Positions 2,031 through 19,884 of a stretch of DNA of 22,972 nt are shown piece after piece; position 1 is the first letter of the stretch; every line of letters starts with the position of its first letter. Position numbers and translations under genes: made by a program. Origin of the DNA: a virus. The notes below the pieces were generated by a model. The model was given only the letters and a program-made list of their open reading frames with translations, was not told where the DNA came from and made no database searches. The DNA lies in IMG/VR virus record IMGVR_UViG_3300018411_001336, positions 1 to 22,972 of that record; one strand, 5' to 3'.

Positions 2031-3454
2031 TGGCGGTGGCGAGTCCCTATCCGAACTACCAGCCGCTTCGTTCGCGCTGGGTACCGCGTGTGCCGGAGCA
2101 CTGGTCGCTGCTGCGTGCCAAAAATTTCTTGCGGGAGATTGACGATCGGTCGAAAGCCGGCGAGGAGACGCTGCTGTCAATGCGTATGCAGCGGGGCTTG
2201 GTGCCGCATAACGATGTCTCGGTAAAGCGCATCGCCCCAGAGAACCTCATTGGCTACAAGAAGGCACAACCGGACGAGCTTGTATTGAACCGGATGCAGG
2301 CGGGCAACGCCATGTTCTTCCGCAACCGCCAGCCCGGTTTAGTCAGCCCGGACTACGCCGTATTCCGCTTGCTCCGCGACGACAACCCAGAATATCTCGG
2401 CCACCTGTTCCGTTCGTGGCCAATGCGCGGGTTGTTCCGTTCGGAATCGAAGGGGCTTGGGACAGGCACTTCAGGCTTCTTGCGCCTCTACTCGGATCGC
2501 TTCACGGCGCTGGAGATTCCGCTGCCTCCGCGCCCCGAGCAAGACCAGATCGTTGCCTATCTCCGTGCACAAGATGCCCACATCGCCCGCTTCATCCAGG
2601 TCAAGCGCGATCTCATCAAGCTGCTCACCGAACAGAAGCTACGCATCATCGACCACGCCGTAACACACGGCCTAGATGCATCGGTGACGCTGAAGCCGTC
2701 CGGCATCGAATGGCTGGGTGAGGTGCCGGAGCATTGGGAAGTCGCCTTCATTAAGCACATTGCGGACGTGCGCTTCAGCGGCGTAGACAAACACTCGCAC
2801 GACCACGAAACACCGGTGCGCCTGTGCAATTACACCGACGTCTACAAAAACGACCGCATCACCGGCGATATGGACTTGATGCGCGCCACAGCGACGGAGG
2901 CGGAGATCGCCCGCCTGACGCTGAAAGCGGGTGATGTCATTCTGACCAAGGATTCCGAAACACCGGACGACATTGGCGTGCCCGCGTGGGTGCCGGAGGA
3001 CCTGCCCGGCGTGGTTTGCGCATATCACCTCGGCCTGCTGCGCCCCGTACCGAATCGGGTGTTGGGCGAGTTCCTGTTTCGCGCCATCGGCTCGGCGCGT
3101 ACGGCGCAGCAGTTCCACGTTCTTGCCACCGGCGTCACACGCTTTGCACTTGGCAAGCACGACGTGAAAAACGCTGTCGTTGCCTTGCCGCCGGTCGAAG
3201 AACAGCAATCCATCTGTCGCTGGATCACCAATGAGTGCCAACCGCTGGACGACGCCATCGCCCGCACGGAAGAGGAAATCAAGCTGATCCGCGAGTACCG
3301 CGACCGCCTGATTGCCGATGTGGTCACCGGCCAAGTGGACGTACGCGGCTGGCAGCCTGACCCGGACGACGTGGTAGACGACGCGGCGCTGGCTGCGCTC
3401 GGCGATGACCAAGAGGATGTGACCGAAGAGGAGGATGGCGATGGCGAAGACTGA
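2030..3454 (+). CDS. hsdS: Type I restriction-modification specificity subunit HsdS
   Basis: This DNA recognition subunit directs HsdM and HsdR to a bipartite target. The protein is 474 aa with the usual two-repeat layout. The first target recognition domain begins at PEHWSLLRAKNFL (residue about 22). A central conserved helix region follows from PEQDQIVAYLR (about 169). The second domain starts at SGIEWLGEVPEHWEV (about 224), and the C-terminal helices begin at PPVEEQQSI (about 387). The PEHW hallmark occurs in both halves. A tail of about 30 residues is strongly acidic and looks like an add-on to the family. I chose the ATG at 2030 because it forms a TGATG junction with the hsdM stop; a GTG at 2027 is a possible alternative. 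The 3' end overlaps hsdR by 14 bases. The second domain replaces the target half-site, so specificity cannot be predicted without a database match. Confidence 0.95.
   Translation: MAVASPYPNYQPLRSRWVPRVPEHWSLLRAKNFLREIDDRSKAGEETLLSMRMQRGLVPHNDVSVKRIAPENLIGYKKAQPDELVLNRMQAGNAMFFRNRQPGLVSPDYAVFRLLRDDNPEYLGHLFRSWPMRGLFRSESKGLGTGTSGFLRLYSDRFTALEIPLPPRPEQDQIVAYLRAQDAHIARFIQVKRDLIKLLTEQKLRIIDHAVTHGLDASVTLKPSGIEWLGEVPEHWEVAFIKHIADVRFSGVDKHSHDHETPVRLCNYTDVYKNDRITGDMDLMRATATEAEIARLTLKAGDVILTKDSETPDDIGVPAWVPEDLPGVVCAYHLGLLRPVPNRVLGEFLFRAIGSARTAQQFHVLATGVTRFALGKHDVKNAVVALPPVEEQQSICRWITNECQPLDDAIARTEEEIKLIREYRDRLIADVVTGQVDVRGWQPDPDDVVDDAALAALGDDQEDVTEEEDGDGED
3428..3434 (+). promoter_or_regulatory. Ribosome binding site of hsdR inside the hsdS acidic tail
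   Basis: The sequence GAGGAGG lies 6 bases before the ATG at 3441. It sits within the hsdS codons for its Glu-Glu-Asp tail. It is directly adjacent to an earlier ATG at 3435, which is too close to be served by it. The site therefore decides the hsdR start at 3441 rather than 3435. Confidence 0.7.
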
Positions 3455-6400
3455 TACCAGCGAGCGCTGGTTCGAGGCGCGCGTGGTACGCGGCTTGACC
3501 GGTGTGCCACAGCCCGAGTACAGCCACGCGCTGGCTCCTACGGACTTCGCCGCCACCCACAACGGCTACGTGCAGGGCAAGCCCACCGACTACAACCGCG
3601 ACGTGGCGCTGGATGTGGCGCAGTTGCTGGCCTTCTTGCAGGCCACCCAGCCCAAGGCGGTGGAGACACTGGAGCTGGCGGCGGACGGCATTAAGCGCAC
3701 CCAATTCCTGCACCGGCTACAGGGCGAGATCACCAAGCGTGGCGTTGTGGACGTGCTGCGCAAGGGAGTTAGCCACGGACCGGTACACGTCGATCTGTAC
3801 AAGCTGCTGCCCACGCCGGGCAACGCTGCCGCAGCGGATGCCTTCGGCAAGAACATTTTTAGCGTCACCCGGCAGGTGCGCTACAGCAACGATTCCGGCA
3901 ACGAACTGGACTTGGCGATCTTCATCAATGGCCTGCCGGTGCTGACCTTCGAGCTGAAGAACTCGCTGACCAAGCAGACCCTTGCCGACGCCATCGTCCA
4001 ATACCAGACCACGCGCAGCCCGCAGGAGCTGCTGTTCCAGCTGGGTCGTTGCGTCGCGCACGTCGCGGTCGATGACGCGGAGGCCGCGTTCTGCACCGAG
4101 CTCAAGGGGAAGGCATCGTGGTTCCTGCCATTCAACCAGGGCTGGAACAGCGGTGCAGGCAATCCGCCCAACCCGGATGGTCTGAAGACCGATTACCTGT
4201 GGAAGCAGGTGCTGAACCGCGAGTCGCTGGCCAACATCATCGAGAGTTACGCGCAGGTGGTGGAGGAGGAAGAAGCAGACGCCAGCGGCAAGAAACGCAA
4301 GAAGCGCAAGCAGATCTTCCCGCGCTTCCATCAGTTGCGCACGGTGCGTGCCCTGCTGCGCCGTGCCCATACCGATGGGGTGGGCAAACGTTATCTGATC
4401 CAGCATTCGGCAGGCAGCGGCAAGAGCAACACCATTGCCTGGCTGGCGCACCAGTTGGTGGAATTGCGCCGCAAGGACGACCCGATGACGGCGCAGTTTG
4501 ACTCCATCGTCGTCATCACTGACCGGCGCGCGCTGGACACGCAGATCGCCCGCACCATCAAGGGTTACGACCACGTCGCGGCAATTTTCGGCCACTCCGA
4601 CAACGCGCAGGAGCTGCGCGAGTACCTGCGCCGGGGCAAGAAGATCATCGTCACCACGGTGCAGAAATTCCCGTTCATCCTCGATGAGCTGGGCGACCTC
4701 TCCGGCAAGAGCTTCGCGCTTTTGATCGACGAGGCGCATTCCAGCCAAGGCGGCAAGACCACGGCGCGGATGCACGAAGCCCTCGGCGGCAAGGTGGCCG
4801 AGGAGGAGTTCGAGGAGGACAGCACGCAGGATGCGGTGAACGCGGAAATCGAGAAGCGCATCGCCTCGCGCAAGCTGCTCGCCAACGCGAGCTACTTCGC
4901 CTTCACTGCCACGCCCAAGAACAAGACGCTGGAGTTGTTCGGTGAGAAGACTCTGGTCGGCGACAAGGTGCAGTTCCGCTCGCCCGAAGAACTGACCTAC
5001 ACCACCAAGCAGGCCATCCAGGAGAAGTTCATCCTCGACGTGGTGGAGAACTACACCCCCTACGACAGCTTCTACCAAGTGGCCAAGACGGTGGCGGACG
5101 ACCCGGAATTCGACAAGGTGAAGGCGCTGAAGAAAATCCGCCACTACGTCGAATCGCACGACAAGGCCATCCGCCGCAAGGCCGAGATCATGGTCGATCA
5201 CTTCATCGCACAGGTCGCGGGCAAGCAGAAGATCGGCGGCAAGGCGCGGGCGATGATCGTGTGCAACGGCATCGCGCGGGCCATCGACTACTGGCGCGAG
5301 GTGTCGGACTACCTCACGCAGATCAAGAGCCCGTACAAGGCCATCGTGGCGTACTCGGGCGACTTCGAGATCGGTGGCCAGAAAAAGACCGAGGCCGATC
5401 TGAACGGGTTTCCGAGCAAGGACATTCCGGCCAACCTCAAGCAAGACCCGTATCGCTTCCTGATCGTCGCCAACAAGTTCGTCACCGGCTTCGATGAGCC
5501 CTTGCTGCACACGATGTACGTGGACAAGCCGTTGGCGGGCGTGCTGGCAGTGCAGACCCTGTCACGCCTGAACCGCGCGCATCCGCAGAAGCACGACACC
5601 TTTGTGCTCGACTTCGCCGACAACGCCGAGGCGGTGAAGGCGGCGTTCCAGGACTACTACCGCGCGACCATCCAGACCGGCGAAACCGACGCCAACAAAC
5701 TGCACGACCTGAAGGCCGAACTCGACGGGCAGCAGGTGTACAGCTGGCAACAGGTGGAAGACTTGGTGGCGCTGTACTTGAGCGGCGCAGACCGGGACAA
5801 ACTCGACCCCATCCTCGATGCTTGCGTGGTCGAATACACCGACAAGCTCGGCGAGGACGATCAGGTCAAGTTCAAGGGGAAGGCGAAGGCCTTCGTGCGC
5901 AGTTACGGTTTCCTCGCCGCGATCCTGAGCTACGGCCACCCGACGTGGGAGAAGCTGTCGATCTTCCTGAACTTCCTCATTCCCAAATTGCCCGCGCCCA
6001 AGGAGGAAGACCTATCCAAGGGGGTGCTGGAGACTATCGACATGGACAGCTACCGTGTGGAGGCCAAAGCGGCGCTGAAGATGGCGATGGCCGACGCCGA
6101 CGCCACGGTCGAGCCAGTACCGCCGGGCGGCGGTGGCGGCAAGGGCGAGGCAGACATCGACAAACTCTCCGCGATCATCAAGACCTTCAACGACCTATTC
6201 GGCAACATCGAGTGGAAGGACGAGGACAAGATCCGCAAGGTCATCGCCGAGGAGATCCCGGCGCGAGTGGCGCAGGACAAGGCTTACCAGAATGCGCAGG
6301 CGAACTCCGACAAGCAGAACGCCAAGTTGGAGCACGATAAGGCGCTCAACCGCGTGGTGCTGGAGCTGCTGTCCGACCACACCGAACTGTTCAAGCAGTT

Positions 6401-6512
6401 CAGCGACAACCCCAACTTCAAGCGCTGGCTGACGGACACCGTTTTCGATGCGACCTATCAGCAGGGGACGGTTCCGCCGAAGGCTCCGCCACAGGCTGGA
6501 GCGTCAGCATGA
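3441..6512 (+). CDS. hsdR: Type I restriction-modification endonuclease/translocase subunit HsdR
   Basis: HsdR is the motor and nuclease of the type I complex. It pumps unmethylated DNA with ATP and cuts at a distance from the target. From the chosen start it is 1023 aa, the usual size. The N-terminal nuclease shows the PD-(D/E)XK pattern: D157 in NELDLAIFINGLP, then E171 and K173 in FELK. The superfamily 2 helicase motor follows, with Walker A AGSGKS (324-329), the DEAH box (430-433), the TATPK motif near 4901-4915 and the arginine motif QTLSRLNRAH near 5554-5583. The C-terminal part (after about residue 880) is helical and charged and probably docks onto HsdM/HsdS. All key residues are present, so the enzyme looks intact. 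Its TGA at 6510-6512 overlaps the ATG of a nine-codon frame leading to the SLATT gene. Confidence 0.96.
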   Translation: MAKTDTSERWFEARVVRGLTGVPQPEYSHALAPTDFAATHNGYVQGKPTDYNRDVALDVAQLLAFLQATQPKAVETLELAADGIKRTQFLHRLQGEITKRGVVDVLRKGVSHGPVHVDLYKLLPTPGNAAAADAFGKNIFSVTRQVRYSNDSGNELDLAIFINGLPVLTFELKNSLTKQTLADAIVQYQTTRSPQELLFQLGRCVAHVAVDDAEAAFCTELKGKASWFLPFNQGWNSGAGNPPNPDGLKTDYLWKQVLNRESLANIIESYAQVVEEEEADASGKKRKKRKQIFPRFHQLRTVRALLRRAHTDGVGKRYLIQHSAGSGKSNTIAWLAHQLVELRRKDDPMTAQFDSIVVITDRRALDTQIARTIKGYDHVAAIFGHSDNAQELREYLRRGKKIIVTTVQKFPFILDELGDLSGKSFALLIDEAHSSQGGKTTARMHEALGGKVAEEEFEEDSTQDAVNAEIEKRIASRKLLANASYFAFTATPKNKTLELFGEKTLVGDKVQFRSPEELTYTTKQAIQEKFILDVVENYTPYDSFYQVAKTVADDPEFDKVKALKKIRHYVESHDKAIRRKAEIMVDHFIAQVAGKQKIGGKARAMIVCNGIARAIDYWREVSDYLTQIKSPYKAIVAYSGDFEIGGQKKTEADLNGFPSKDIPANLKQDPYRFLIVANKFVTGFDEPLLHTMYVDKPLAGVLAVQTLSRLNRAHPQKHDTFVLDFADNAEAVKAAFQDYYRATIQTGETDANKLHDLKAELDGQQVYSWQQVEDLVALYLSGADRDKLDPILDACVVEYTDKLGEDDQVKFKGKAKAFVRSYGFLAAILSYGHPTWEKLSIFLNFLIPKLPAPKEEDLSKGVLETIDMDSYRVEAKAALKMAMADADATVEPVPPGGGGGKGEADIDKLSAIIKTFNDLFGNIEWKDEDKIRKVIAEEIPARVAQDKAYQNAQANSDKQNAKLEHDKALNRVVLELLSDHTELFKQFSDNPNFKRWLTDTVFDATYQQGTVPPKAPPQAGASA

Positions 6513-6538
6513 GAACGAATTGGTGCGGGAGTACGTGA
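6509..6538 (+). CDS. Nine-codon leader ORF linking hsdR to the SLATT gene (speculative)
   Basis: An ATG at 6509 overlaps the hsdR stop as ATGA. It is preceded by GGAG at 6498-6501 with a 7-base spacer, which is a sound ribosome binding site. The frame encodes MRTNWCGST and stops with TGA at 6536-6538, which in turn overlaps the SLATT ATG as TGATG. A ribosome leaving hsdR could start here, stop, and restart on the SLATT gene. The peptide itself is probably irrelevant. Chance is a real possibility for nine codons, so this is offered as a coupling device rather than a proven gene. Confidence 0.3.
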   Translation: MRTNWCGST

Positions 6539-7059
6539 TGGCCGGTGCATCGCCACAGGATCAAGCCAAGATTTCTGCCCTTTGCAGAGAGGCCGAGCGA
6601 CTGGAAGAAGACGCCCTGTATTCGAGCAAGGGGCATTTCAATGCCGAAGACACATGGGTTCGGCGCAACTACTGGCTCGGTGTGCCAGCGACCGCACTTG
6701 GTGCGATTGCAGGTGCCGCTCTGATTAAAAGCCAACCCGAGTGGGCCAGTGCCTTCACCTTGCTGGCTTCGCTGCTGACGGGGTTGATGACCTTTCTCAA
6801 GCCCAACGAGCGCGCTGCAATGCACCGGGCAGCTGCCGGACAGTTCTTGGCTCTTCGGAATGAAGCCCGTTTTTTTCGCGAGATCGAATTGCTTGAGACC
6901 GATCGGCTGGGAGAGCTTCCTGAGAGATTGAAGGCACTTTCCTCTGCACGAAATGAGCTGAACCAGAAGAGCCCGAGCATTCCACGGCGCGCATTTGTGG
7001 CCGCACGCAAAGGCATAGAAGAAGGCGAAGCCACCCACAAAGTGGACAAGGAGAAATGA
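6538..7059 (+). CDS. SLATT-domain two-transmembrane protein, predicted CBASS-like membrane effector
   Basis: This 173-aa protein matches the layout of SLATT domains (SMODS- and SLOG-associating two-TM effectors), which are predicted to form pores or otherwise damage the membrane when a partner enzyme makes a nucleotide signal. An N-terminal helix (CREAERLEEDALYSSKGHF, residues about 15-33) precedes two hydrophobic segments, about 46-61 (VPATALGAIAGAALI) and 67-83 (ASAFTLLASLLTGLMTF). A long amphipathic helix follows (NERAAMHRAAAGQFLALRNE onward) with the family's R/E-rich FFREIELLE stretch. I chose the ATG at 6538 because GGGAG lies 6 bases upstream; the frame is open further upstream, and TTG 6520 or GTG 6523 would add a few residues. 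It is 4 bases from the nucleotidyltransferase gene, the standard SLATT partner. Family assignment is from pattern recognition; effector action is inferred from the family. Confidence 0.8.
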   Translation: MAGASPQDQAKISALCREAERLEEDALYSSKGHFNAEDTWVRRNYWLGVPATALGAIAGAALIKSQPEWASAFTLLASLLTGLMTFLKPNERAAMHRAAAGQFLALRNEARFFREIELLETDRLGELPERLKALSSARNELNQKSPSIPRRAFVAARKGIEEGEATHKVDKEK

Positions 7060-7063
7060 CAGG

Positions 7064-7840
7064 ATGTCGGTATTGAGTTTTCTGACGGACACGGCCAGCA
7101 GTGCCGTGCTCTCCACAACTGAGCAGTCGTCGATCACGACTTCGATCATCACACTTCAATCGCGGATGGCGCTGCACTTTGACAGCGGCGTAATTGCGCA
7201 GCATTTCCGATTCGGCTCTTCAACGCGAGGCACGATCCTGCCGCGCTCAATGGACGAACAGTCCGATATTGATTACATGGTGGTCTTCAGCGATGGCAGC
7301 GCCACGCCGCAGACTTACCTGAATAGGTTGAAGACTTTTGTCGAAAAACGGTACGGCTCATCGGAAATCTATCAGTCCAGCCCGACCATTGTTCTCGAGT
7401 TGAACCACATCAAGTTCGATCTGGTGCCCGCGACAAAAACGTGGCTCGGCGAGCTTCAGATTCCCAACGGGTCAGGCGGTTGGATGACCACGAATCCGAA
7501 CGACTTCAACGCCACTCTTGAAGCAAAGAACAAGGACAACAACTCTTTGATCAAGCCAACTATTCGTCTGATGAAATATTGGAATGCGGCCAGCGGATTT
7601 CCATTCGATTCATTTGCGATGGAGAAGTGGATTTGTGGTCAGGGCTTTTGGTTCCAGTCGAATCAAAAGGACTACCTGTTTTCGGTAATCGACAATCTGA
7701 GCACCGACTCGTCTTACTCGCAACGAGTCAATAATGAAATCACGCGTGCAAAAACTATTGTGGCCAAGGTCAGGCAATGCGAGAAAGACCAGATGCCGGT
7801 AACGGCTGAGAATGAGGTCAAGAAGTTGTTCAGGCTCTGA
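7064..7840 (+). CDS. CD-NTase-fold (SMODS-type) nucleotidyltransferase, predicted signal synthase
   Basis: This 258-aa protein is predicted to make a cyclic or linear oligonucleotide that activates the adjacent SLATT effector, as in two-gene CBASS-like systems. The polymerase-beta-type active site is complete: GSSTRGT at residues 51-57, the two-acid motif SDIDYMVVF with D68 and D70, and the third acid D119 in KFDLVPA. The C-terminal half contains a helical region (LIKPTIRLMKYWNA, then FAMEKWICG) like the OAS1/CD-NTase second domain. At 258 aa it is shorter than many CD-NTases of 300 to 400 aa. No Cap2/Cap3, HORMA or TRIP13 gene is nearby, so it would be a minimal (type I-like) arrangement. 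Base composition is low for the region: my hand counts give 27/60, 25/60 and 26/60 GC at 7501-7560, 7561-7620 and 7681-7740, against 36/60 at 5281-5340 in hsdR. The nucleotide product cannot be told from sequence. Confidence 0.85.
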   Translation: MSVLSFLTDTASSAVLSTTEQSSITTSIITLQSRMALHFDSGVIAQHFRFGSSTRGTILPRSMDEQSDIDYMVVFSDGSATPQTYLNRLKTFVEKRYGSSEIYQSSPTIVLELNHIKFDLVPATKTWLGELQIPNGSGGWMTTNPNDFNATLEAKNKDNNSLIKPTIRLMKYWNAASGFPFDSFAMEKWICGQGFWFQSNQKDYLFSVIDNLSTDSSYSQRVNNEITRAKTIVAKVRQCEKDQMPVTAENEVKKLFRL

Positions 7841-7852
7841 GGGGGTATTGAA

Positions 7853-8800
7853 ATGGCATTAAATCTCGCAAAGGCCGTCATCGGCTACCTGAAGGAACGC
7901 CCCGAGGAAAAATTCACTGCTCGGCAAATTGCAGAATGGGTATTTGCCACCTATCCGGATGAGTGCCAGGAAAAGCGGGCCAACAGCCGTGGGGACTACA
8001 TCAAGTCTGATGCGGATCTGGTGCAGCAGCTCGTCGCAGAAATCAGTTCGCAGCGCCCGCGCATGCAAACGAAGCACCCAGAGCTGAAAACGACAGAGGG
8101 ACGGCCGCGCAAGTACTACTACTCGGAGCGCTCGGACAGCGCCGAAGTGGCGGCGGTGGAAAGCGAAGGTACGTCGGCGGCTGCAGATGCCAGTGCGTTA
8201 AAGATTGACGAACACGCGCTGTACCCATTGTTGTCGCAATACCTGTGGGAGGAGTTCGGCGTCTTCTCCAAACGCATCGACGAGAAGCGCTCGTCGAACA
8301 AGCGCGGCCCCAACGGCAACCGCTGGCTGTACCCGGACGTCGTCGGAATGGAGGATTTGGGCAAGGAGTGGCACCGGGAGGTGCGCGACTGTGTGACGCA
8401 GTATTCCGACAAGCGCACCAAGTTGTGGTCGTTCGAGGTCAAGTTGCTGATCAACCGTTCGAACGTGCGCGAGTGCTTTTTCCAGGCGGTGTCGAATTCG
8501 TCGTGGGCCAATTTCGGCTATCTGGTTGCGGCAGAACTTGGCGGTACTGACACGCTGAAGGAACTGCGGATGCTGTTCGCCGCCCACGGCATCGGCTTCA
8601 TCAAGCTGGACGTGGACAACCCTGCCGACAGTCAGGTGCTGATTCCGGCGCGCGAGCGAGACGAGATCGATTGGGACATGGCCAATCGGTTGGCCACGGA
8701 GAACCGGGATTTTCTGGAATACGTGAAGCTGGTCAAGCAGTTCTACCAGACCGGCGAGGCGCGCCCGGCGGACTGGGATGTTCCCGAGACGGGGGACTGA
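7853..8800 (+). CDS. COG2958/HrgA-like protein: N-terminal HTH-like region plus C-terminal PD-(D/E)XK-type domain
   Basis: The protein is 315 aa. The N-terminal 90 or so residues (ALNLAKAVIGYLKE, FTARQIAEWVF, LVQQLVAEISSQRPRMQ, then GRPRKYYYS) look like the winged-helix-type region of the COG2958/HrgA family, which is known from restriction loci such as hrgA of Helicobacter pylori. A low-complexity linker (about 104-120) leads to a C-terminal domain with D162 in YPDVVGME and E195-x-K197 in SFEVKL. This spacing fits a PD-(D/E)XK nuclease core, followed by a helix ECFFQAVSNSSWANFGYLV. The start at 7853 has a G-rich stretch (7841-7845) about 8 bases upstream and lies 12 bases after the nucleotidyltransferase stop, so it is in the same operon. 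Composition returns to that of the hsd genes (35/60 GC at 8521-8580). Nuclease activity is inferred from the motif only. It may serve the RM system, the CBASS-like pair, or be independent. Confidence 0.72.
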   Translation: MALNLAKAVIGYLKERPEEKFTARQIAEWVFATYPDECQEKRANSRGDYIKSDADLVQQLVAEISSQRPRMQTKHPELKTTEGRPRKYYYSERSDSAEVAAVESEGTSAAADASALKIDEHALYPLLSQYLWEEFGVFSKRIDEKRSSNKRGPNGNRWLYPDVVGMEDLGKEWHREVRDCVTQYSDKRTKLWSFEVKLLINRSNVRECFFQAVSNSSWANFGYLVAAELGGTDTLKELRMLFAAHGIGFIKLDVDNPADSQVLIPARERDEIDWDMANRLATENRDFLEYVKLVKQFYQTGEARPADWDVPETGD

Positions 8801-8804
8801 CGGT

Positions 8805-9095
8805 TTATTCCAGATGGCCGATCACGTCGAGGCGTTCATCGCCACGCTGAAACGCCCCGAACCAGCCATCGCGCGAGTCGGCGCGCGTGCGGCTCACCAG
8901 CAACGTGAACCCCTCGCAGCCGCGCCCCTTGGCGGTGGCGAAGTCGGTGGTGTCGAATTTGGCCTCGCGCACCAGCGTCGTGGCCACCGACTTCATGGCC
9001 GATTCGAACAGGTCGAGCAGATGTTCTTGCAGGCTGGCGTCGATGTTGCGCGAGGTCACGTCGTCAATGACGGCGTGCTTGAATCGGTTACTCAT
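8805..9095 (-). CDS. Hypothetical 96-aa protein at the end of the phage late operon
   Basis: I do not recognise this protein. It starts MSNRFKHAVIDDVTSRN and is soluble-looking, with mixed charge, a helical first half (LQEHLLDLFESAMKSVATTLV) and a second half containing a GCEGFTLLVSRTRADSRDGWF stretch. The ATG at 9095 has GGAG 8 bases upstream, so I prefer it over a TTG at 9101. It follows Rz after a gap of 108 bases on the same strand, and its TAA lies only 4 bases from the stop of the HrgA-like gene on the other strand. It could be the last phage late gene or a small cargo gene. A 141-codon plus-strand frame overlapping it has no ribosome binding site or recognisable content. Confidence 0.55.
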   Translation of the reverse strand: MSNRFKHAVIDDVTSRNIDASLQEHLLDLFESAMKSVATTLVREAKFDTTDFATAKGRGCEGFTLLVSRTRADSRDGWFGAFQRGDERLDVIGHLE

Positions 9096-9203
9096 GGTCA
9101 ATGCTCCGTGGTGGGTACGGATGTCATGAACGCGCTGTTCGGGCTGAAAGCCAAGCGCATTCGGGATGGAACGATCAGATGTTGCGAAGTCGTCAAGCGC
9201 TGA
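9096..9203. other. 108-base gap between Rz and the 96-aa gene
   Basis: The gap contains the ribosome binding site of the 96-aa gene (GGAG on the minus strand near 9104-9107) and a TTGACG box on the minus strand (9191-9196) without a convincing -10 partner at normal spacing. I see no hairpin with a T-run and no attachment-site signature. A 20-codon frame on the minus strand (start near 9162) lacks a ribosome binding site. Confidence 0.4.
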
Positions 9204-9701
9204 CTACTTGGTGGTGGATGCCATCTCGCTGACCCAAGCCTGCAACGCCCTCAGTTGCTCGGCGTTTTCGTGGCAGGTTTGGTAGTTGGCGGCAAGGGTT
9301 CCGGCGACGGCAGAGAGCGCAATGCCTGCGGCGGCCGCATCAGCATCTCGGGCGGGCTCGGGCAGGTCACCTGCGGCGGCAGCGTCGTGCAGGCGCACAA
9401 AGCCACGGTTGATAGTGCAAGCAGCATCGGCTTGAACGGGCACATAGACGGGAACCTCCTTGATGATGGTGTCGCCCTTCTCGCGGACGACGCGGACGCG
9501 GTCGACGTACTGCGTAACGACCTTGACGGTGGCTTGCGCCTGCCGTTCGCGGACGGCGGCGGCTTGCAGGGCTTGTTGCTGGATGGCGGCATCCCATTGC
9601 GCTTGAACGTGGCTCGCACCCTTGATCCAGCCGAAGCCGACCAGGGCGACGCTGAGCGCCGCGAGGGTCAGCAGCCGGTACGGCCACGGAATCAAGTTCA
9701 T
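9204..9701 (-). CDS. Rz: Phage inner-membrane spanin Rz
   Basis: This is the i-spanin. With Rz1 it bridges inner and outer membranes and fuses them in the last step of lysis of Gram-negative hosts. The protein is 165 aa. It has a single N-terminal membrane segment (about residues 9-24, LLTLAALSVALVGFGW) followed by a periplasmic, Ala/Gln-rich region that is likely coiled coil (about 33-65), and VVREKGDTIIKEVPVYV. I chose the ATG at 9701, which overlaps the endolysin stop as ATGA and has GGAGA 7 bases upstream. A longer upstream frame covers the endolysin and is not used. Cys residues in the C-terminal part (CTINRG, TCHEN) may form disulphides. Rz1 lies wholly within this gene in another frame, the classic lambdoid-style nested pair. 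Confidence 0.88.
   Translation of the reverse strand: MNLIPWPYRLLTLAALSVALVGFGWIKGASHVQAQWDAAIQQQALQAAAVRERQAQATVKVVTQYVDRVRVVREKGDTIIKEVPVYVPVQADAACTINRGFVRLHDAAAAGDLPEPARDADAAAAGIALSAVAGTLAANYQTCHENAEQLRALQAWVSEMASTTK
9251..9445 (-). CDS. Rz1: Phage outer-membrane spanin lipoprotein Rz1, nested inside Rz
   Basis: This is the 64-aa o-spanin partner of Rz. The N-terminus MCPFKPMLLALSTVALCAC is a short lipoprotein signal; the lipobox is L16-C17-A18-C19, giving a mature protein of about 46 aa that starts with the lipidated Cys. The mature part is rich in proline (TLPPQV, SPPEML, SPEPLPPTTKP), typical for Rz1. The start at 9445 is fixed by an excellent ribosome binding site, AAGGAGGT at 9454-9461, 8 bases upstream. 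That site lies inside the Rz coding sequence. A later Met (9427) has no such site. It is in a different frame from Rz and ends 47 bases before it. It is shorter than the signal-less 122-codon open frame around it. Confidence 0.85.
   Translation of the reverse strand: MCPFKPMLLALSTVALCACTTLPPQVTCPSPPEMLMRPPQALRSLPSPEPLPPTTKPATKTPSN
9454..9461 (-). promoter_or_regulatory. Strong Shine-Dalgarno for Rz1 within the Rz gene
   Basis: The minus strand reads AAGGAGGT, a near-perfect match to the 16S rRNA 3' end, placed 8 bases before the Rz1 ATG at 9445. In the Rz frame these bases encode part of IIKEVPVYV. The site independently supports Rz1 translation and start choice. Confidence 0.85.
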
Positions 9702-10198
9702 GGCGCTTCTCCGACGCACTGGCGGTATTCGGACTGCCGACGCGTGGCCAGCCCGCCGCACAGGCGTACATTGGCAGGCAGCGCGCAGTCCTTGCCCTGG
9801 AAGAAGCGCCAGCGCAGCAGCTCGGAACAGGCTCCGGCGTAGTCCTCGGCGTTGAGTTTCCTCACCAGCGTGGATTGGCAGAACGCGCGGCTGCCGACGT
9901 TGTAGGAGAAACTCACCAGCGCGTCGTACTCGTGCTGGGCCAGCGGCACGGTCACGCACGTTTTCAATGCGCCCTCGAACTGCTGCACGTCGGTGAGCGC
10001 GCGGGCCAGCGCCTTCGGCGGCGTGGTGGTGTCGCCCAGCTTCACGTCCGTGGTGGTGCCGAAGCCGATGGTCGGCACATCACCCTTGACCGGGATCACT
10101 GCGCGGTCGGTGTAGCCCTCGTGCAGCACGATGCCGACCAGGGCGGCGGCAGACAGCGTCAGCGCGGTCACGGTGCGTCGTTGCGGTGGCCGGATCAT
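9698..10198 (-). CDS. Phage endolysin, GH24 lysozyme (T4/P21-like), likely signal-arrest-release type
   Basis: This muramidase cleaves the glycan strands of peptidoglycan at lysis. The protein is 166 aa, normal for GH24. The catalytic Glu is E27 in LHEGYTD and the family Thr is T43 in DVPTIGFGTT. The Asp of the triad is probably D40, although the spacing from E27 differs from the usual E-8-D-5-T, so this is tentative. The substrate-cleft stretch EYDALVSFSYNVG (about 108-120) and a C-terminal LCGGLATRRQSEYRQCVG are typical of phage lysozymes. Residues about 10-25 (VTALTLSAAALVGIVL) form a weakly hydrophobic, Ala/Gly-rich segment with no signal cleavage site directly before the catalytic Glu, as in SAR endolysins that are exported by the host Sec system and released when the membrane is depolarised. 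It has GGAG 8 bases before the ATG and ATGA overlaps with both neighbours. Confidence 0.92.
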   Translation of the reverse strand: MIRPPQRRTVTALTLSAAALVGIVLHEGYTDRAVIPVKGDVPTIGFGTTTDVKLGDTTTPPKALARALTDVQQFEGALKTCVTVPLAQHEYDALVSFSYNVGSRAFCQSTLVRKLNAEDYAGACSELLRWRFFQGKDCALPANVRLCGGLATRRQSEYRQCVGEAP

Positions 10199-10422
10199 CG
10201 GTGCATCTCCGGCTGCGCCACGATGCGGGCCACGGTCGCACCGATGCTGGCGGCGAAGGCCAGCAGCACGAATGCGCCACGCGGCAGCACATCCCCGAAC
10301 AGCGGCACCACCACTTCCGCCGCCGTGAAGGCAGCGGCCAGCAGCGAAAAGCGAATGCTCCAGGCCCGTCGCATTACGCGCCGCCAGTCGTCCAAAAGGC
10401 AGATCTTCGGCTTGGCGGTCAT
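10195..10422 (-). CDS. Small two-transmembrane protein, probable holin
   Basis: The protein is 75 aa. After a basic, tryptophan-containing N-terminus (CLLDDWRRVMRRAWSIR) come two predicted membrane segments, about 24-41 (FSLLAAAFTAAEVVVPLF) and 48-66 (GAFVLLAFAASIGATVARI), with a short charged tail. Size, topology and position directly upstream of the endolysin are those of a class II-type holin or pinholin. A pinholin would suit a SAR endolysin because it only needs to depolarise the membrane. The ATG at 10422 has GGGAGG 6 bases upstream; a longer frame upstream overlaps the preceding gene and is not used. It shares ATGA overlaps with both neighbours. The function is inferred from context and topology, and the DUF6127-like neighbour is the alternative holin. 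Confidence 0.68.
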   Translation of the reverse strand: MTAKPKICLLDDWRRVMRRAWSIRFSLLAAAFTAAEVVVPLFGDVLPRGAFVLLAFAASIGATVARIVAQPEMHR

Positions 10423-10724
10423 TGCACGCCTCCCATCAACTTCAACTTGATGGCGGCCCCCACCAGCAGCGCGGCCAGAATGCCGGTGGTCACGACCTTG
10501 ATGGTGGTCTGCCACGCCGTGCGGCGGGCATCGCGCCACGCTTCCAGCAAATCGCGCAGTTCGCGGATGTCCTTAGCGGCACTGCCGTTCTCCAGCCCGA
10601 TATGGGCAAGGCAGCGCTCGGCTCCGCGTTCGGCGGCACGGTCGAGCAGTTCGTCGAAGTCCTCGCGTCGCAAGAGGAGCATGTTCTCGATGAGCGCAGG
10701 CTGTTGGTGTTCGGGTTCGGTCAT
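10419..10724 (-). CDS. DUF6127-like membrane-anchored protein of the lysis cassette
   Basis: The protein is 101 aa. The soluble N-terminal part has the pattern I associate with DUF6127 phage proteins: LRREDFDELLDRAAERGAE (about 18-36), then a conserved-looking helix AAKDIRELRDLLEAWRDARR (about 49-68). A single C-terminal membrane segment follows (about 76-93, VVTTGILAALLVGAAIKL). This C-tail anchor with a cytoplasmic helix could be a holin accessory or an antiholin, but no role is established. It is the first gene after a hairpin terminator, and its ATG at 10724 has GGAG 6 bases upstream. It therefore opens the lysis cassette, and a promoter or read-through must serve it. I saw no clear promoter in the short gap. 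Confidence 0.7.
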   Translation of the reverse strand: MTEPEHQQPALIENMLLLRREDFDELLDRAAERGAERCLAHIGLENGSAAKDIRELRDLLEAWRDARRTAWQTTIKVVTTGILAALLVGAAIKLKLMGGVQ

Positions 10725-10790: not shown

Positions 10791-11012
10791 TCAGATTTCG
10801 ATGATTTCCAGCGTCAGGCTGGGCGCGACGCCTTCGATGACGTCGTCGCGCACGAACACCTTCTGGCCGATGGGGGCGCTGCCGCGTGCGCGGATCAAGC
10901 CGCCGCCAGGCAAGGCGACGGTCACGACGCCGGAGCCGACGCCCACCACCGTGCCCGCCTGCAATGGCGGATCAGGGATAAGTTGGCGGAACTGCTCGTA
11001 GAGGTTATGCAT
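10791..11012 (-). CDS. Small 73-aa tail-associated protein, possible OB-like fold
   Basis: The protein is almost entirely predicted beta strand with glycine turns: GTVVGVGSGVVTVALPGGG (about 20-38), LIRARGSAPIGQKVFVRDD and a final LTLEIIEI. The alternation suggests a small barrel or OB-like domain such as those attached to tail hubs, but I do not recognise a named family. Its ATG at 11012 lies 8 bases inside the end of the 675-aa hub-like gene, so the two are translationally coupled and probably work together. It is the last tail gene before the hairpin terminator. No membrane segment or signal peptide is present. Confidence 0.7.
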   Translation of the reverse strand: MHNLYEQFRQLIPDPPLQAGTVVGVGSGVVTVALPGGGLIRARGSAPIGQKVFVRDDVIEGVAPSLTLEIIEI

Positions 11013-13032
11013 GGCTCTGCACTCCCAAGGTCTGCCAGACCTCCGGCATTCCTGCCTCGACTTGCGTCGAGCGCACGATGCCCAGCCTCGTCACGCTGCC
11101 GTCCTGGTACTCGACGAACGCACCCGGCTCGATGATCCCTGTCTCGGCCAGCACCGGCAGTCGCAGACTCACCTCGATCTGTTGCCCGGTATCGGCCAGA
11201 ACCGAGATGCCCCGCTGGCGCGCTGCAGCGGCTTCGGTGATCAGCGCATCGACCACCATCGGGGCCAGCACATCCCCGGCAGTCCCAGCCCGGCTCACTT
11301 GCCCAAGCACACCGACATCCTGGCCGGACACGAACACGCGGTTGTAGCCGGGCTTCTCTACCCAGCGCAGCGACTCGCGGGCCACCGCATCGACGGGCAG
11401 CACGAAGTCTGGCGTGACGGTGTTCCACTCCCACGGCGCGACCGGATACCGGTGGCGCACGCGGATGCTCTGGTCAGACGGGTGCGGGATCAGGTACCCC
11501 CCGGCCGCACTGGCAATGGCGACCAGGGCTTCCATCCACGTGCCCTGCTGGGTGAATACCCCGGCAGGGACGTTCCAGTCCGTCAGGCCCCAATCGATGC
11601 TCCAGCCCAACGGGATGCCGTTGAGCGTAAGGGCATCGTCCATCAACTGCCGCGCCGTGCGCGCCTGCGGTTGCTGAAAGTTCATCACCGGCGCGTAGGG
11701 CGCGGCCAGCACTGCGTTACGCCCTCTTCCTGAGATGCGGATGCTCGCGTCGCCGAACACCCGTTCGCGGCTGATGCTCTCGGCCAGTACGCGGAACTGC
11801 GTGCCGTTGACGCTGGCCACCAGTTCGACCGGGCCACCGTTGCCGCCGGGGGCGACGAGGCTTGTAGCGGCGGCGGGCAGCAGCGCATCGAAGCCCCACG
11901 TCCAGGAGGCGGCGTCGAGCGACAGCGAGAGGTTGAACACCGGCACCGGCAATCCATCGGGAAGCCGGTGCAGCGTCACGTTGTTGATCACGAAATACAC
12001 CCTCCGAACGGGAACGACCACCGGCTCCCCATCGGGAGGTGGCGGGTCGATGTGGTTTTCACAAACGAACAGCAAGTGGCTGTCCGCAGGGGCCAATGTC
12101 GCGAACAGCAGGTGGGTGCTCGGCGTGTAGCAAGGTTGTGGCGCGGGCGGCTCTGGGATCACCCAGAAGCTGATCCCAGGTGGTGGCGGCACGGCATCCT
12201 GATACCGGCCACGCCAACCCCACACGAAGGCACTCGCGCTCTGAAAATCACTCCCTTGGCGCTGGGTGAGCTGCCGCGCGGTTTGCCAAAGGCTCACCCG
12301 TCCCGCGCGCTTGGTGCGGTCGCCGTCTTGATGACGAAACCTCGTCGCATCGCGCAGGCGAGACGCGTTCTGAAACAAGCTCAGTCGAGCCAATTCGAGA
12401 TACGTGCCATCCTGATGCGCGAACCACGTCAAGTCGTGGAAGGGCCGAGCCTGTTGCTGGCCCGTTCGATGCTGCGTAGGCAGCGAGGCCAAGACCGGGG
12501 GTAACCGATGATCGACGCCTTGAGGCGCGGCAATCGTGCGCCGCCAGAACGTCTTCCAGCCTGCGGGCGTTGCAGCCGCATCCTGCTGGCCCTGCTTCGC
12601 GCCGTCCTCCGTCTGCTTCGCCACCTGCCAGAGGTGCGAAGTCCGACCCACCGTGGGACGCTGCGTGTGCGACTCGTACCTGACCTCTCCGGTGAACACG
12701 ATGCCGGGCAGGTTTGCGCCAGCACCAGCCTCCACATTCAAGGGCACGCTCGGGCGCAAGACCAGTGACTGCACCGTCAGGCCCGGGAGCTGGGCTAACA
12801 ACTCGGCCCGTGCCGGTGGGATGAACTTGATCGTGACGACCGGCAGCGGCAGTGTGGCCCACAACGTCACATCGTCGCGCGGGGCGATGTAGTTGGCCCC
12901 GAACACCAAATTGGCGTCGGTGGCAGCGGGTTGATCGAAGAGCAGATCGACCAAGGGCGGACCGACGACTACGGTGACGGCGGGCGCGGGCAACGTGGCG
13001 ACCAAGGTCACCTCGTTGGTCACGGCAGGCAC
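11005..13032 (-). CDS. Phage tail hub-like virion protein (675 aa)
   Basis: The first 120 or so residues are beta-rich and Pro/Ala-rich (VTLVATLPAPAVTVVVGPP and similar repeats). Residues about 130-275 are an unusual Trp/Gln/Arg-rich segment with repeated S-L-(W/F)-Q-x-A units. The C-terminal 330 residues (from about 340, RRVYFVINNV onward) look like a tail hub domain. They contain a bound-function-like region, ISGRGRNAVLAAPYAPV, and a helix-containing part, ARQLMDDALTLNGIPLGWSIDW followed by QGTWMEALVAIASAAGGYL, as in gp27-like hubs. The hub would sit at the tail tip and connect the tube to receptor-binding parts. It starts with GTG at 13032, 3 bases after the stop of the 131-aa gene, with GGGG 6 bases upstream. 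The hub assignment is structural inference from pattern and gene order. Confidence 0.72.
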   Translation of the reverse strand: MPAVTNEVTLVATLPAPAVTVVVGPPLVDLLFDQPAATDANLVFGANYIAPRDDVTLWATLPLPVVTIKFIPPARAELLAQLPGLTVQSLVLRPSVPLNVEAGAGANLPGIVFTGEVRYESHTQRPTVGRTSHLWQVAKQTEDGAKQGQQDAAATPAGWKTFWRRTIAAPQGVDHRLPPVLASLPTQHRTGQQQARPFHDLTWFAHQDGTYLELARLSLFQNASRLRDATRFRHQDGDRTKRAGRVSLWQTARQLTQRQGSDFQSASAFVWGWRGRYQDAVPPPPGISFWVIPEPPAPQPCYTPSTHLLFATLAPADSHLLFVCENHIDPPPPDGEPVVVPVRRVYFVINNVTLHRLPDGLPVPVFNLSLSLDAASWTWGFDALLPAAATSLVAPGGNGGPVELVASVNGTQFRVLAESISRERVFGDASIRISGRGRNAVLAAPYAPVMNFQQPQARTARQLMDDALTLNGIPLGWSIDWGLTDWNVPAGVFTQQGTWMEALVAIASAAGGYLIPHPSDQSIRVRHRYPVAPWEWNTVTPDFVLPVDAVARESLRWVEKPGYNRVFVSGQDVGVLGQVSRAGTAGDVLAPMVVDALITEAAAARQRGISVLADTGQQIEVSLRLPVLAETGIIEPGAFVEYQDGSVTRLGIVRSTQVEAGMPEVWQTLGVQSHA

Positions 13033-13035
13033 GGC

Positions 13036-13431
13036 TTACCCCAGGATGGCCGACACCATCCGGGCGTCACCGCCCAGATAGAGGTTGGTGCTGGCCAGTT
13101 TCACATCGCCATCGCCGTCGGTACCGCTGCAATCCAGATCCAAAGCCGTGACTTCGTTGCCGTTGACCAGCCGCGCCCACGTGGCGATGCCGGTGCTGGT
13201 GATCAAGCCGTCCTCCTGTTGCGTCAGGGTGAGGAGTCCCCCCGCAATCGTGCCTGCGGGCTTGGTGAGCCTGATCTCGACCAGCATCGCGCTCGCGGGC
13301 GTCGTCGCCGGGGTGGCGGGACGCGTACCGCCGTAAATGCGCAGGCGCGCCGGGTTGGTGCCTGCGTCGAGGAAGGCCAAGGTGCCTGCCAGCCGCGCCT
13401 CGTTGTGTTCGACAGTGATGGCAACGGTCAC
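13036..13431 (-). CDS. Phage virion-associated protein (131 aa), function unknown
   Basis: The protein is beta-rich and small: an early AGTLAFLDAGTNPARLRIYGG, a Thr/Pro/Ala-rich loop (about 36-47), and a C-terminal half with LLTLTQQEDGLITSTGIATWARLVNG. It resembles small tail or tail-fibre-associated proteins in its Gly and Thr content, but I cannot name a family. It starts with GTG at 13431, overlapping the stop of the 361-aa gene as GTGA, with GGAG about 10 bases upstream. Its position between the 361-aa protein and the hub-like protein points to a tail-tip component. Confidence 0.68.
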   Translation of the reverse strand: MTVAITVEHNEARLAGTLAFLDAGTNPARLRIYGGTRPATPATTPASAMLVEIRLTKPAGTIAGGLLTLTQQEDGLITSTGIATWARLVNGNEVTALDLDCSGTDGDGDVKLASTNLYLGGDARMVSAILG

Positions 13432-14513
13432 GGCATCATCTCCGGGCGTAGGTTGTCCGCGATCACGGCGCGGTACATCTGCTTGTGGTCGTAGCTGACC
13501 ACCGTGTATCGCTGCGCCGGGTCCAGTAGTTCGAATTGGTAGTTGCCTCCGGTGTCTGACCAGGTTTCGGCGACCAGGACGCGGGTGTTCTCGCTGATGA
13601 GCTGCACCCGCCGCGCCAGCGGTTGGTCGGGTTGTCCCTTCTCCTTGACCGTTCCGACGATGAATCCGTGGCCGCTGAAGTGGATGTTCTTGCGACCGTT
13701 CGGAATCGAATGGAATTGCCAGTCGTAGCCACCACCTCGGTTCCAGTGATTGCTCGACGGGCTGTTGAGGCGCGACAAGTCGACCTGGGCATTGACACCG
13801 ATGTTGGCGGCGGGATTGGGCGGCACCGAGGTCGAGCCCCCGGCCAGGGGCAGGAGATCGTCGTCGGCGTTCACGCCCACCGTCGTCGGAAAAGCGGGCA
13901 AACCGGACGGGGTGTCTCCTGCGATAGCGTGGACGCGTGCCGTGGCTCCGTATAGAAAGACGCCAGGAATCAGCTTGCCCCGGTAGGCGGCATCGCCAAC
14001 CTGGAACATCAGCACGCCATCCGCTTTGAACTGGATCAACCGCGCCCAGGGCACGCCGTTGGCATCCAAGGCACCGACGATGACCTCGCAGCGCAGGGTC
14101 GACCGCTGGCCGACGTTGAAGGTCGGAGCCACGTCGGCCAACCCAGCAATAGGTCTCGCCCCATCATTCACCCCACCTGTCACCCCGGCCCCGTCACCGA
14201 AACCACTGTTCCAGCGGGAAACGCTCCAACCGCCATCGAGATGGGCGAACCGGTAGCCCTCGGAACCATTGCCGGTCGTCATCCACAGCCCGATGTGCTT
14301 GCGGGCGCTTGGGTCGGTCAGCAACTCGATGTCGGCTTCGAACCAGAAATCGCCGTGGGCGGCTTCATTGAAGCGCAGGATGGACTGGCTGTTGGGAGCC
14401 GAGATGTCGATGGATTGCTGCGCACTGTTGTGCGTCGCGGACATTCCGCCAAGGACTGCGGTGTAGCCAGTGGCAGGCGCAGTGGCGAAGGACTCGCTCA
14501 GCGGGTAGCTCAT
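13428..14513 (-). CDS. Phage tail-tip protein with lectin-like N-terminus and regulatory-like beta domain (361 aa)
   Basis: Residues about 1-200 look like a concanavalin/LamG-type beta sandwich (FWFEADIELLTDPSARKHIGLWM, then YRFAHLDGGWSVSRWN and VPWARLIQFKADGVLMFQVG). Residues about 285-361 resemble a carboxypeptidase-regulatory-like beta domain: GHGFIVGTVKEKG, RRVQLISENTRVLVAETWSD, TGGNYQFELLDPAQRYTVVSYD. Both domain types occur in phage adhesion proteins and would suit surface binding to the host. The start is the ATG at 14513, 3 bases after the previous stop. The middle (about 205-265) is Pro/Asn-rich and probably a flexible linker. Domain names are from pattern recognition only. Confidence 0.72.
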   Translation of the reverse strand: MSYPLSESFATAPATGYTAVLGGMSATHNSAQQSIDISAPNSQSILRFNEAAHGDFWFEADIELLTDPSARKHIGLWMTTGNGSEGYRFAHLDGGWSVSRWNSGFGDGAGVTGGVNDGARPIAGLADVAPTFNVGQRSTLRCEVIVGALDANGVPWARLIQFKADGVLMFQVGDAAYRGKLIPGVFLYGATARVHAIAGDTPSGLPAFPTTVGVNADDDLLPLAGGSTSVPPNPAANIGVNAQVDLSRLNSPSSNHWNRGGGYDWQFHSIPNGRKNIHFSGHGFIVGTVKEKGQPDQPLARRVQLISENTRVLVAETWSDTGGNYQFELLDPAQRYTVVSYDHKQMYRAVIADNLRPEMMP

Positions 14514-14516
14514 GGC

Positions 14517-15782
14517 TTACCTCCACGGCCCGGTGATGTCGAACGCGATCTGCGCGCCTTCGGTTTCCGAGCTGTACTGCGTCCTGACCAACAGGAACCT
14601 TCTGCCTTCCTGGCCGACGACGTTGTCGACGATGGTCTGGTCGCTGTACGGACGATCCTGGGGCATCCACAGCATTCCAGGCAGGATGCCGCGCATGTGG
14701 CCATCCTCCTGCCGCACGTAGGTGGGCAGCAGCCACAAGCTGTAGTCGGCTCCGTTCGGGAACGGCGTCGGGCCCCGGCCACAGATCTGCTGGCCGTTGT
14801 TCGTGTTCAGGGACGTGAGCCCAAACCGCACCGGGTTGCCGAGTTGGGTGTGGTTGCGCAGCAGCACCTTGCCCGTGAAGTCCAGGGACGAAACCAGCCC
14901 GTAGCCGCTGAACTGGCCGGGATAGCTCCAGTAGTTGCTCATCCCCGAGTAGTTGTCATCGGCAGCCAGCACCGTGGCGTAGTTGTCACCCGGCTTGAAG
15001 CTGATGAGGTCGCCAAAGCAGTAGCTGTTGCGGCCATACCAGCCGTAGCCCGCTGCGTTGGTGCAGAACAGGAAGAACAGGCGGTCGTCACCGATCAGCA
15101 CCCAGTTGCGCCCACCGCCGCCGCTGTCGCCATTGCTCTCGTACTGGGGGCCGCGCGCGTGGAACCACTTGTACCAACCCCACTGGCTGGCGGTGACCTG
15201 TTTCCAGTTCTGCGTCGGGTTGTTCGGGTCATAGGGAGCCTGCGCGCCGACGATGGTGTCGATGTCCGACAGGTCTTCGACGATGCCGACGTTGGCCCAC
15301 TTGGCCCAGCCCGTCGTGTAGTTGGGCGTCTTGAGGCTGTTGTCGATCAGCAGAATGTTTTGCGGGGACTGCGGGTTCTTGCTGCGGTAGGCGGCCTTGT
15401 GAGTCGACGAGAACGGCTTCTCCCACCCCAGCGGGGCGACCTTGGCCGAGAGACTCGTCGCCGTCGTGGCGGGTGAGACGGGCGTGCCGGTCACCGCATA
15501 GGTGAACGTGGTCATCGTCGCCGTCAGCACACGGAACTGTCCGTTGTACTCAGTCTGCTCAGCGCCAGCGATCTCGACCACTTGAAATGGCCGATAGGCG
15601 TGGCCCGAGGAAATGGTCGCCGTGGCGATGCCGTCGGCGAAGGTCAACGTGTCGATGGCCTTCAGGGCGAAGCCGTTGATCAGGCACGCATCGAGCATCG
15701 TCACCAGATCGCCCCAGTTGTTGGCGATCTGGGGCGCGCCGGTCATGCCGCTGGTGAAGTATTTGACGCTCAGGTCGGTCAT
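14517..15782 (-). CDS. Phage virion/tail protein (421 aa), function unknown
   Basis: The N-terminal 110 residues (MTDLSVKYFTSGMTGAPQI, then NNWGDLVTMLDACLINGF, and strands with GHAYRPFQVVEIAG) form a compact domain often found at the start of tail-associated proteins. The rest is rich in Trp, Tyr, Gly and Asn (QWGWYKWFHARGPQYESN, NAAGYGWYGRNSYCFGD), the composition of an exposed adhesion protein. I cannot name the family. The ATG at 15782 has an AGGA motif about 8 bases upstream. A 47-base gap separates it from the 1202-aa gene, and no promoter or terminator is evident in the gap. The next gene begins 3 bases after its stop. Confidence 0.75.
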   Translation of the reverse strand: MTDLSVKYFTSGMTGAPQIANNWGDLVTMLDACLINGFALKAIDTLTFADGIATATISSGHAYRPFQVVEIAGAEQTEYNGQFRVLTATMTTFTYAVTGTPVSPATTATSLSAKVAPLGWEKPFSSTHKAAYRSKNPQSPQNILLIDNSLKTPNYTTGWAKWANVGIVEDLSDIDTIVGAQAPYDPNNPTQNWKQVTASQWGWYKWFHARGPQYESNGDSGGGGRNWVLIGDDRLFFLFCTNAAGYGWYGRNSYCFGDLISFKPGDNYATVLAADDNYSGMSNYWSYPGQFSGYGLVSSLDFTGKVLLRNHTQLGNPVRFGLTSLNTNNGQQICGRGPTPFPNGADYSLWLLPTYVRQEDGHMRGILPGMLWMPQDRPYSDQTIVDNVVGQEGRRFLLVRTQYSSETEGAQIAFDITGPWR

Positions 15783-15829
15783 AGGAATTCCTGCGAGAAG
15801 GGTTCAAAGATCAGGGGGCACCCACACCA

Positions 15830-19848: not shown

Positions 19849-19884
19849 CGGGAAACCCTCAGGCAGAGAAACAGGAGCGCACGG

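What the first reader, a model, noticed from the sequence alone, without database searches (positions are those of the whole stretch)
8783..8830. Defence operon and phage late operon meet tail-to-tail with 4 bases between stops
The HrgA-like stop is at 8798-8800 and the stop of the 96-aa gene at 8805-8807 on the other strand. No terminator, att site or phage end fits between. Either both sides belong to one element (defence operon as prophage cargo next to the lysis genes), or the phage end lies in 9096-9203 and the 96-aa gene is not phage. Read-through from either side would give antisense RNA.
Basis: partly seen in the sequence, partly recalled or inferred. Interest (0 to 1): 0.6.

Follow-up and report, generated by a model that had tools for sequence, protein, structure and literature searches.

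The report
Conserved hinge of a prophage defence hotspot
The point where a phage's lysis genes meet an antiviral gene cluster is not a chance join but a conserved two-gene hinge, found in about 60 related prophages in many bacteria, behind which different sets of defence genes are swapped in and out.

Summary
In detail: the stops lie at 8798-8800 (+) and 8805-8807 (-), with CGGT between. The first alternative is supported (both sides belong to one prophage-type element); the second is rejected (a phage end at 9096-9203 and a non-phage 96-aa gene). The 96-aa gene (p96) belongs to a large family of temperate phages with a serine recombinase, several of which sit beside ssrA. In 54 of 56 measurable loci, p96 meets the same HrgA-like gene tail-to-tail with 3-9 bases between stops. 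On one side of the pair the lysis cassette changes; on the other the cargo changes (type I RM, two CBASS types, GmrSD, BREX, others). Identity profiles show independent swaps on both sides, with breakpoints inside HrgA. So the pair is the fixed inner border of a prophage defence hotspot. p96 carries a 31-bp upstream element shared with other small genes of these phages. p96 has no match in Pfam, PHROGs, NCBIfam, PADLOC or INPHARED. Not settled: the exact right end of this prophage, whether any of it is expressed, and whether p96 acts on the defence genes. Antisense read-through is possible but untested.

The parts
7853..8800 (+). HrgA-like gene (315 aa): N-terminal winged-helix-like domain, C-terminal PD-(D/E)XK-like motif (PD162..FE195-V-K197..Q211); last gene of the defence operon and outer half of the hinge
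   Evidence: 80-98% identical relatives in the same place in about 55 loci
8801..8804 (.). four bases (CGGT) between the two stop codons
   Evidence: gap of 3-9 bases in 54 of 56 loci
8805..9095 (-). p96: 96-aa gene of unknown function, last gene on the phage side of the hinge
   Evidence: no family in Pfam, PHROGs, NCBIfam, PADLOC
9126..9156 (-). 31-bp element GCTTGGCTT-N10-CAGCGCGTTCAT, 30 bp before the p96 start codon; promoter-like; also before other small genes of these phages
9204..9674 (-). Rz-like spanin (phage lysis)
   Evidence: phrog_4952 1.8e-60, phrog_2536 Rz-like
9698..10198 (-). phage lysozyme (endolysin)
   Evidence: PF00959 5e-33
10195..10419 (-). holin-like gene
   Evidence: phrog_1356 1e-11
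10419..10724 (-). DUF6127 phage protein (p101)
   Evidence: PF19622 1.5e-28
11005..22972 (-). phage tail genes (tail protein, tape measure and others), continuing outside the window
   Evidence: PHROG tail families; tail region similar to Acidovorax phages ACPWH/ACF1
7064..7840 (+). CBASS oligonucleotide cyclase (SMODS)
   Evidence: PF18144 3e-38; PADLOC cyclase 9e-119
6538..7059 (+). SLATT / 2TM CBASS effector
   Evidence: NF033632 9e-39; PADLOC 2TM effector 5e-77
3435..6512 (+). HsdR, type I restriction subunit
2027..3454 (+). HsdS, type I specificity subunit
3..2030 (+). HsdM, type I methyltransferase; cut by the window edge; operon continues outside with GmrSD and a WYL regulator gene

Best explanation
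The junction is the fixed inner border of a defence-cargo hotspot at the right end of a family of temperate tailed phages. On the phage side the lysis genes end with p96. On the other side a convergent defence operon (WYL regulator, GmrSD, type I RM, CBASS, HrgA) ends with HrgA. The pair p96-HrgA, about 1.25 kb, stays put while the lysis cassette on one side and the defence cassette on the other are exchanged by homologous recombination, with crossovers inside or beside HrgA. Shown here: the conserved pair and spacing, variable cargo, variable lysis cassettes, mosaic breakpoints, integrase and ssrA copies around the window. Inferred: that the operon is expressed in the lysogen and protects it from other phages (lysogenic conversion), that the element before p96 is its promoter, and that excision carries the cargo along.
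For: p96 with HrgA tail-to-tail in nearly all loci; all 39 viral HrgA loci carry p96. Cargo differs between loci. Mosaic: own vs L058 and L064 have unrelated lysis DNA (25-47%) but p96-HrgA at 85-99% and CBASS cargo mostly at 95-100%; own vs L040 and L027 have the same lysis genes and pair but unrelated cargo. HrgA distances track p96 near the junction (rho 0.64) and less further away (0.11-0.53 over the first 400 bases); L059/L023 differ by 2% in p96 and the HrgA 3' end but by 27% in the HrgA 5' end. Same 31-bp element upstream of p96 in 56 of 57 loci and in other phage genes. Own genome: phage integrase module at the left end, ssrA at 2086019-2086396 and a partial 3'-end copy at about 2160546, window in between; in other genomes the same integrase sits beside ssrA. 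Tandem prophages in L413 show RM-like cargo between the lysis genes of one phage and the integrase of the next.
Against: The exact right end of this prophage is not fixed: after the WYL gene come a second phage's lysozyme remnant, a stress-tolerance-like locus and a second integrase module. No congener gives a clean empty site. HrgA relatives of 33-48% identity, and one of 92%, occur in cellular genomes without p96, so HrgA is not exclusive to these phages. Two loci have lost HrgA but keep p96 and cargo (L035, L049). No cultured phage in INPHARED carries p96. No expression or activity data.
Confidence: 0.8

Rival explanations
1. The phage ends between p96 and the Rz gene (9096-9203); p96 and the defence operon are host genes.
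For: A module boundary does lie there: in several pairs of loci DNA identity jumps just upstream of p96.
Against: p96 follows phage lysis genes of at least two different cassettes in dozens of viral contigs and in unrelated bacteria; its upstream element also precedes other phage genes including the integrase-linked DUF2924 gene; in L326 p96 lies in an array of such phage genes without HrgA.
Confidence: 0.03
2. p96 is a dedicated partner of HrgA or of the cargo, for example an inhibitor or licensing factor that protects the phage's own DNA or switches the defence off during its lytic growth.
For: Near-obligate pairing; p96 strongly conserved (mean column identity 89%) with its own promoter-like element.
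Against: p96 persists in L035 and L049 after loss of most of HrgA and in L326 without it; HrgA relatives exist without p96; conservation of a recombination hinge alone would give the same pairing. No structure (pLDDT 49) or known family.
Confidence: 0.25
3. The tight convergent layout is itself selected: late transcription runs into HrgA antisense and silences the defence operon during lytic growth, or defence transcription runs into the lysis genes and damps them in the lysogen.
For: No terminator near the junction; gap of 3-9 bases kept in 54 of 56 loci.
Against: Consensus scans miss Rho-dependent termination; no excess of synonymous conservation at the two 3' ends; close spacing is common in phages (general knowledge).
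Confidence: 0.15
4. The pair is only shared by recent common ancestry and has no role in cargo exchange.
For: All loci belong to one broad phage family.
Against: Unrelated lysis DNA on one side and unrelated cargo on the other, with breakpoints inside HrgA, require repeated recombination.
Confidence: 0.1

Closest known systems
[quoted passage not shown] 2022, PMC9122126)
   Same: Varied defence systems at a fixed place next to conserved phage genes; high turnover; anchor genes can be used to find new systems.
   Different: Different phage family (serine recombinase, several at ssrA); cargo here is a multi-system operon of 10 kb or more rather than about 1-5 kb; the inner anchor is a convergent pair whose outer member looks like a nuclease and takes the crossovers; the outer border was not fixed.
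HrgA / HARE-HTH restriction-type proteins (hrgA of Helicobacter pylori and Campylobacter, cited in PMC4615327)
   Same: Winged-helix-like N-terminus, nuclease-like C-terminal motif, found beside RM genes; a distant relative (L347) matches Pfam HARE-HTH.
   Different: The window protein itself matches no Pfam, NCBIfam or PADLOC model significantly; relation to the Helicobacter protein was not tested; here it is fixed next to a phage gene.
Type I CBASS, type I RM and GmrSD type IV restriction
   Same: The cargo genes match these families strongly.
   Different: Ordinary members; only their place in a phage hotspot is notable.
WYL regulators of defence islands (BrxR-type, PMC9122601)
   Same: A WYL-domain gene at the 5' end of the defence operon.
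   Different: Not tested for binding or regulation.

Membership tests
Prophage defence hotspot | Same location relative to conserved phage genes in many related phages | tested here: met
   p96-HrgA after the lysis genes in about 60 loci
Prophage defence hotspot | High turnover of content at that location | tested here: met
Prophage defence hotspot | Content enriched in defence systems | tested here: met
   RM, CBASS, GmrSD, BREX, MADS-like kinase, PLD-helicase, caspase
Prophage defence hotspot | Bounded on both sides by conserved phage genes | tested here: inconclusive
   inner border clear; outer border often WYL and then integrase or ssrA side, not fixed
Prophage defence hotspot | Small size, about 1-5 kb, as reported for P2/P4 (not treated here as defining) | tested here: not met
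   operon from HrgA to WYL spans about 12 kb (C1 2137252-2149072); a size difference within the kind, hence filed as a variant
Prophage defence hotspot | Measured anti-phage activity | not testable with these tools
   needs plaque assays
Type I CBASS | Cyclase plus membrane effector in one operon | tested here: met
Type I restriction-modification | HsdM, HsdS and HsdR genes | tested here: met
HrgA / HARE-HTH nuclease | Match of the window protein to a HARE-HTH model | tested here: not met
   no significant Pfam match; only the distant relative L347 matches PF05066 at 1.8e-12
HrgA / HARE-HTH nuclease | PD-(D/E)XK catalytic residues conserved | tested here: inconclusive
   D162, E195, K197 and Q211 invariant down to about 32% identity, but the C-terminal fold is not predicted (pLDDT under 50)
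HrgA of Helicobacter | Homology to the H. pylori protein | not tested
Phage moron | Own promoter | tested here: inconclusive
   conserved 31-bp element at fixed distance; transcription not shown
Phage moron | Own terminator | tested here: not met

The most novel reading that the evidence does not exclude
p96 belongs to a phage regulon defined by the 31-bp element and acts on HrgA or the defence cargo, so that the phage can carry any defence set behind HrgA and still complete its own lytic cycle: a built-in safety switch at the border of a swappable defence cassette.
Probability: 0.15. Interest if true: 0.8.

Novelty: new variant of a known kind. Interest (0 to 1): 0.55.

Why it matters
A conserved anchor pair makes a new search handle: whatever lies behind HrgA in these prophages is a defence candidate, as anchor genes did for P2 and P4. 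It shows how large multi-system defence operons can travel and be exchanged in phages outside the well-studied enterobacterial ones. It also makes testable how a phage avoids being stopped by the defence it carries.

Tried and rejected
Mu-like transposable phage with an end at the junction: considered, dropped because a serine recombinase and ssrA copies were found. Reading the 31-bp element as the start of a coding sequence (MNAL...): dropped because one copy has a stop in that frame. Rfam hit at the junction: none. Clean empty site in congeners: not obtained; flanks are rearranged. Direct att repeat at the integrase end: only a 13-base chance match. Structures: p96 pLDDT 49, HrgA C-terminus under 50, so no fold assignment; Foldseek of HrgA gave only weak winged-helix-type matches, none with E below 0.05. 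Synonymous conservation at the 3' ends: no clear excess. p96 in INPHARED phages and in solved structures: none.

Full report
Observation. The coordinates are right. HrgA-like stop TGA at 8798-8800, p96 stop TAA at 8805-8807 on the other strand, CGGT between. p96 starts at ATG 9095. No intrinsic terminator, tRNA/tmRNA or Rfam RNA is at the junction. The left side is a defence operon: HsdM, HsdS, HsdR, a 2TM/SLATT effector, a CBASS cyclase and the HrgA-like gene; outside the window it begins with a WYL regulator and GmrSD. The right side is phage: spanin, lysozyme, holin, DUF6127, tail genes.

Is p96 a phage gene? Yes. Relatives at 72-100% identity are in nearly all of 35 viral contigs, and most of 27 genome contigs carry one at 74-100%, mainly Beta- and some Gammaproteobacteria; a profile finds 47 viral loci. 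It follows the lysis genes, and these belong to at least two unrelated cassettes. It is absent from INPHARED and from Pfam, PHROGs, NCBIfam and PADLOC.

The pair. In 54 of 56 measurable loci an HrgA relative lies tail-to-tail with p96, 3-9 bases apart. Searching from the other side, all 39 viral HrgA loci have p96; many, not all, are the same contigs. Exceptions: L035 and L049 keep p96 and cargo but only about the first 11 codons of HrgA, so HrgA was lost there; L326 has p96 in an array of other small phage genes. More distant HrgA relatives, and one close one (G285, 92%), sit in cellular genomes without p96, several beside RM genes.

The cargo. Behind HrgA lie type I RM of several kinds, CBASS with 2TM or patatin effector, GmrSD, BREX BrxL, a MADS-like kinase, a PLD-helicase and a caspase protein, often ending in GmrSD and WYL genes.

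How it changes. Pairwise identity in 100-bp steps shows swaps on both sides. Own versus L058 and L064: lysis DNA unrelated, pair similar, CBASS cargo mostly 95-100%. Own versus L040 and L027: lysis and pair similar, cargo unrelated. L059 versus L023: p96 and the 3' end of HrgA differ by 2%, the 5' end by 27%. Across 36 distinct pairs the correlation of HrgA distances with p96 distances is 0.64 next to the junction and 0.11-0.53 over the first 400 bases. This is what crossovers inside HrgA would produce. Relatedness among loci was not corrected for, so the correlations are descriptive.

The element before p96. A 31-bp sequence, GCTTGGCTT-N10-CAGCGCGTTCAT, lies about 60 bp before the start codon in 56 of 57 loci, 45 without mismatch. 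In the own genome its other close copies lie only in the same prophage region and the second integrase module. A scan of viral contigs stopped at its limit with 119 stretches, up to seven copies each; it mostly precedes small ORFs by 25-38 bp, among them p96, the DUF2924 gene next to the integrase and several unnamed families. Fixed internal spacing suggests a promoter or binding site. This is inference.

Borders in the own genome. The window is C1:2123080-2146051. A serine recombinase module is at 2092184-2095068; early, head and tail genes run from there to the window. ssrA is intact at 2086019-2086396, and partial copies of its 3' end lie at about 2160546-2160577 and 2174772-2174803. Related integrases in other genomes sit directly beside ssrA, and congener G003 has a related one there. 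So the window lies inside an ssrA-bounded island. The island is composite: after the WYL gene come another phage's lysozyme remnant, a locus that looks from its first residues like a stress-tolerance locus, and a second integrase module 80% identical to the first. The exact right end of the window's phage is therefore open. In L413 two prophages lie in tandem, with RM-like genes between the lysis genes of one and the integrase of the next, which places cargo inside the phage.

Mechanism. Best supported: a prophage defence hotspot whose inner border is the p96-HrgA hinge, with cassette exchange by homologous recombination and, by inference, lysogenic conversion to phage resistance. HrgA itself is probably a DNA-binding nuclease: winged-helix-like N-terminus (pLDDT 72-92) and invariant PD..ExK..Q residues, but the C-terminal fold was not predicted. 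Whether p96 acts on HrgA or the cargo, and whether the convergent layout matters for transcription, cannot be told from sequence.

Known or new. Prophage hotspots for defence genes are known (Rousset et al., PMC9122126), there as 1-5 kb loci between two conserved phage genes. This one is in another phage family, carries a multi-gene operon of about 12 kb, and uses a convergent pair as anchor. The literature searched here showed no description of it, but that library is incomplete.

Noticed in passing
window 9126-9156; also G000:C1 2094886, 2110359, 2110977, 2111279, 2165999: 31-bp element before several small genes of this phage family; 119 or more stretches in viral contigs, up to seven per contig. 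It may define a phage regulon of small genes.
   Followed up: partly
L460/L458 (G020), L461/L464 (G149), L059, L061, L072: Compact forms in which the integrase or ssrA lies close beside lysis genes (with p96-HrgA-defence in all but the G149 second element), with head, tail and replication genes missing: repeated deletion that keeps defence, or satellite-like elements.
   Followed up: partly
G000:C1 2149746-2160457 (outside the window): ClpK-, FtsH- and small-heat-shock-like genes resembling a transmissible stress-tolerance locus (recognised by eye from the translations, not searched) beside a second phage lysozyme remnant at 2149254-2149664.
   Followed up: no
L035 8230-8480 and L049 8230-8480: Two HrgA losses that both leave about the first 11 codons followed by a stop, next to p96.
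   Followed up: partly
L025, L068: Two ParB-like genes and a second, different serine recombinase beyond the defence cargo; perhaps an outer-border module.
   Followed up: no
L343 (G285): A 92% HrgA with RM cargo lies beside what looks like an intein and a phage head gene fragment, without p96: the defence cassette may move between phage types.
   Followed up: no
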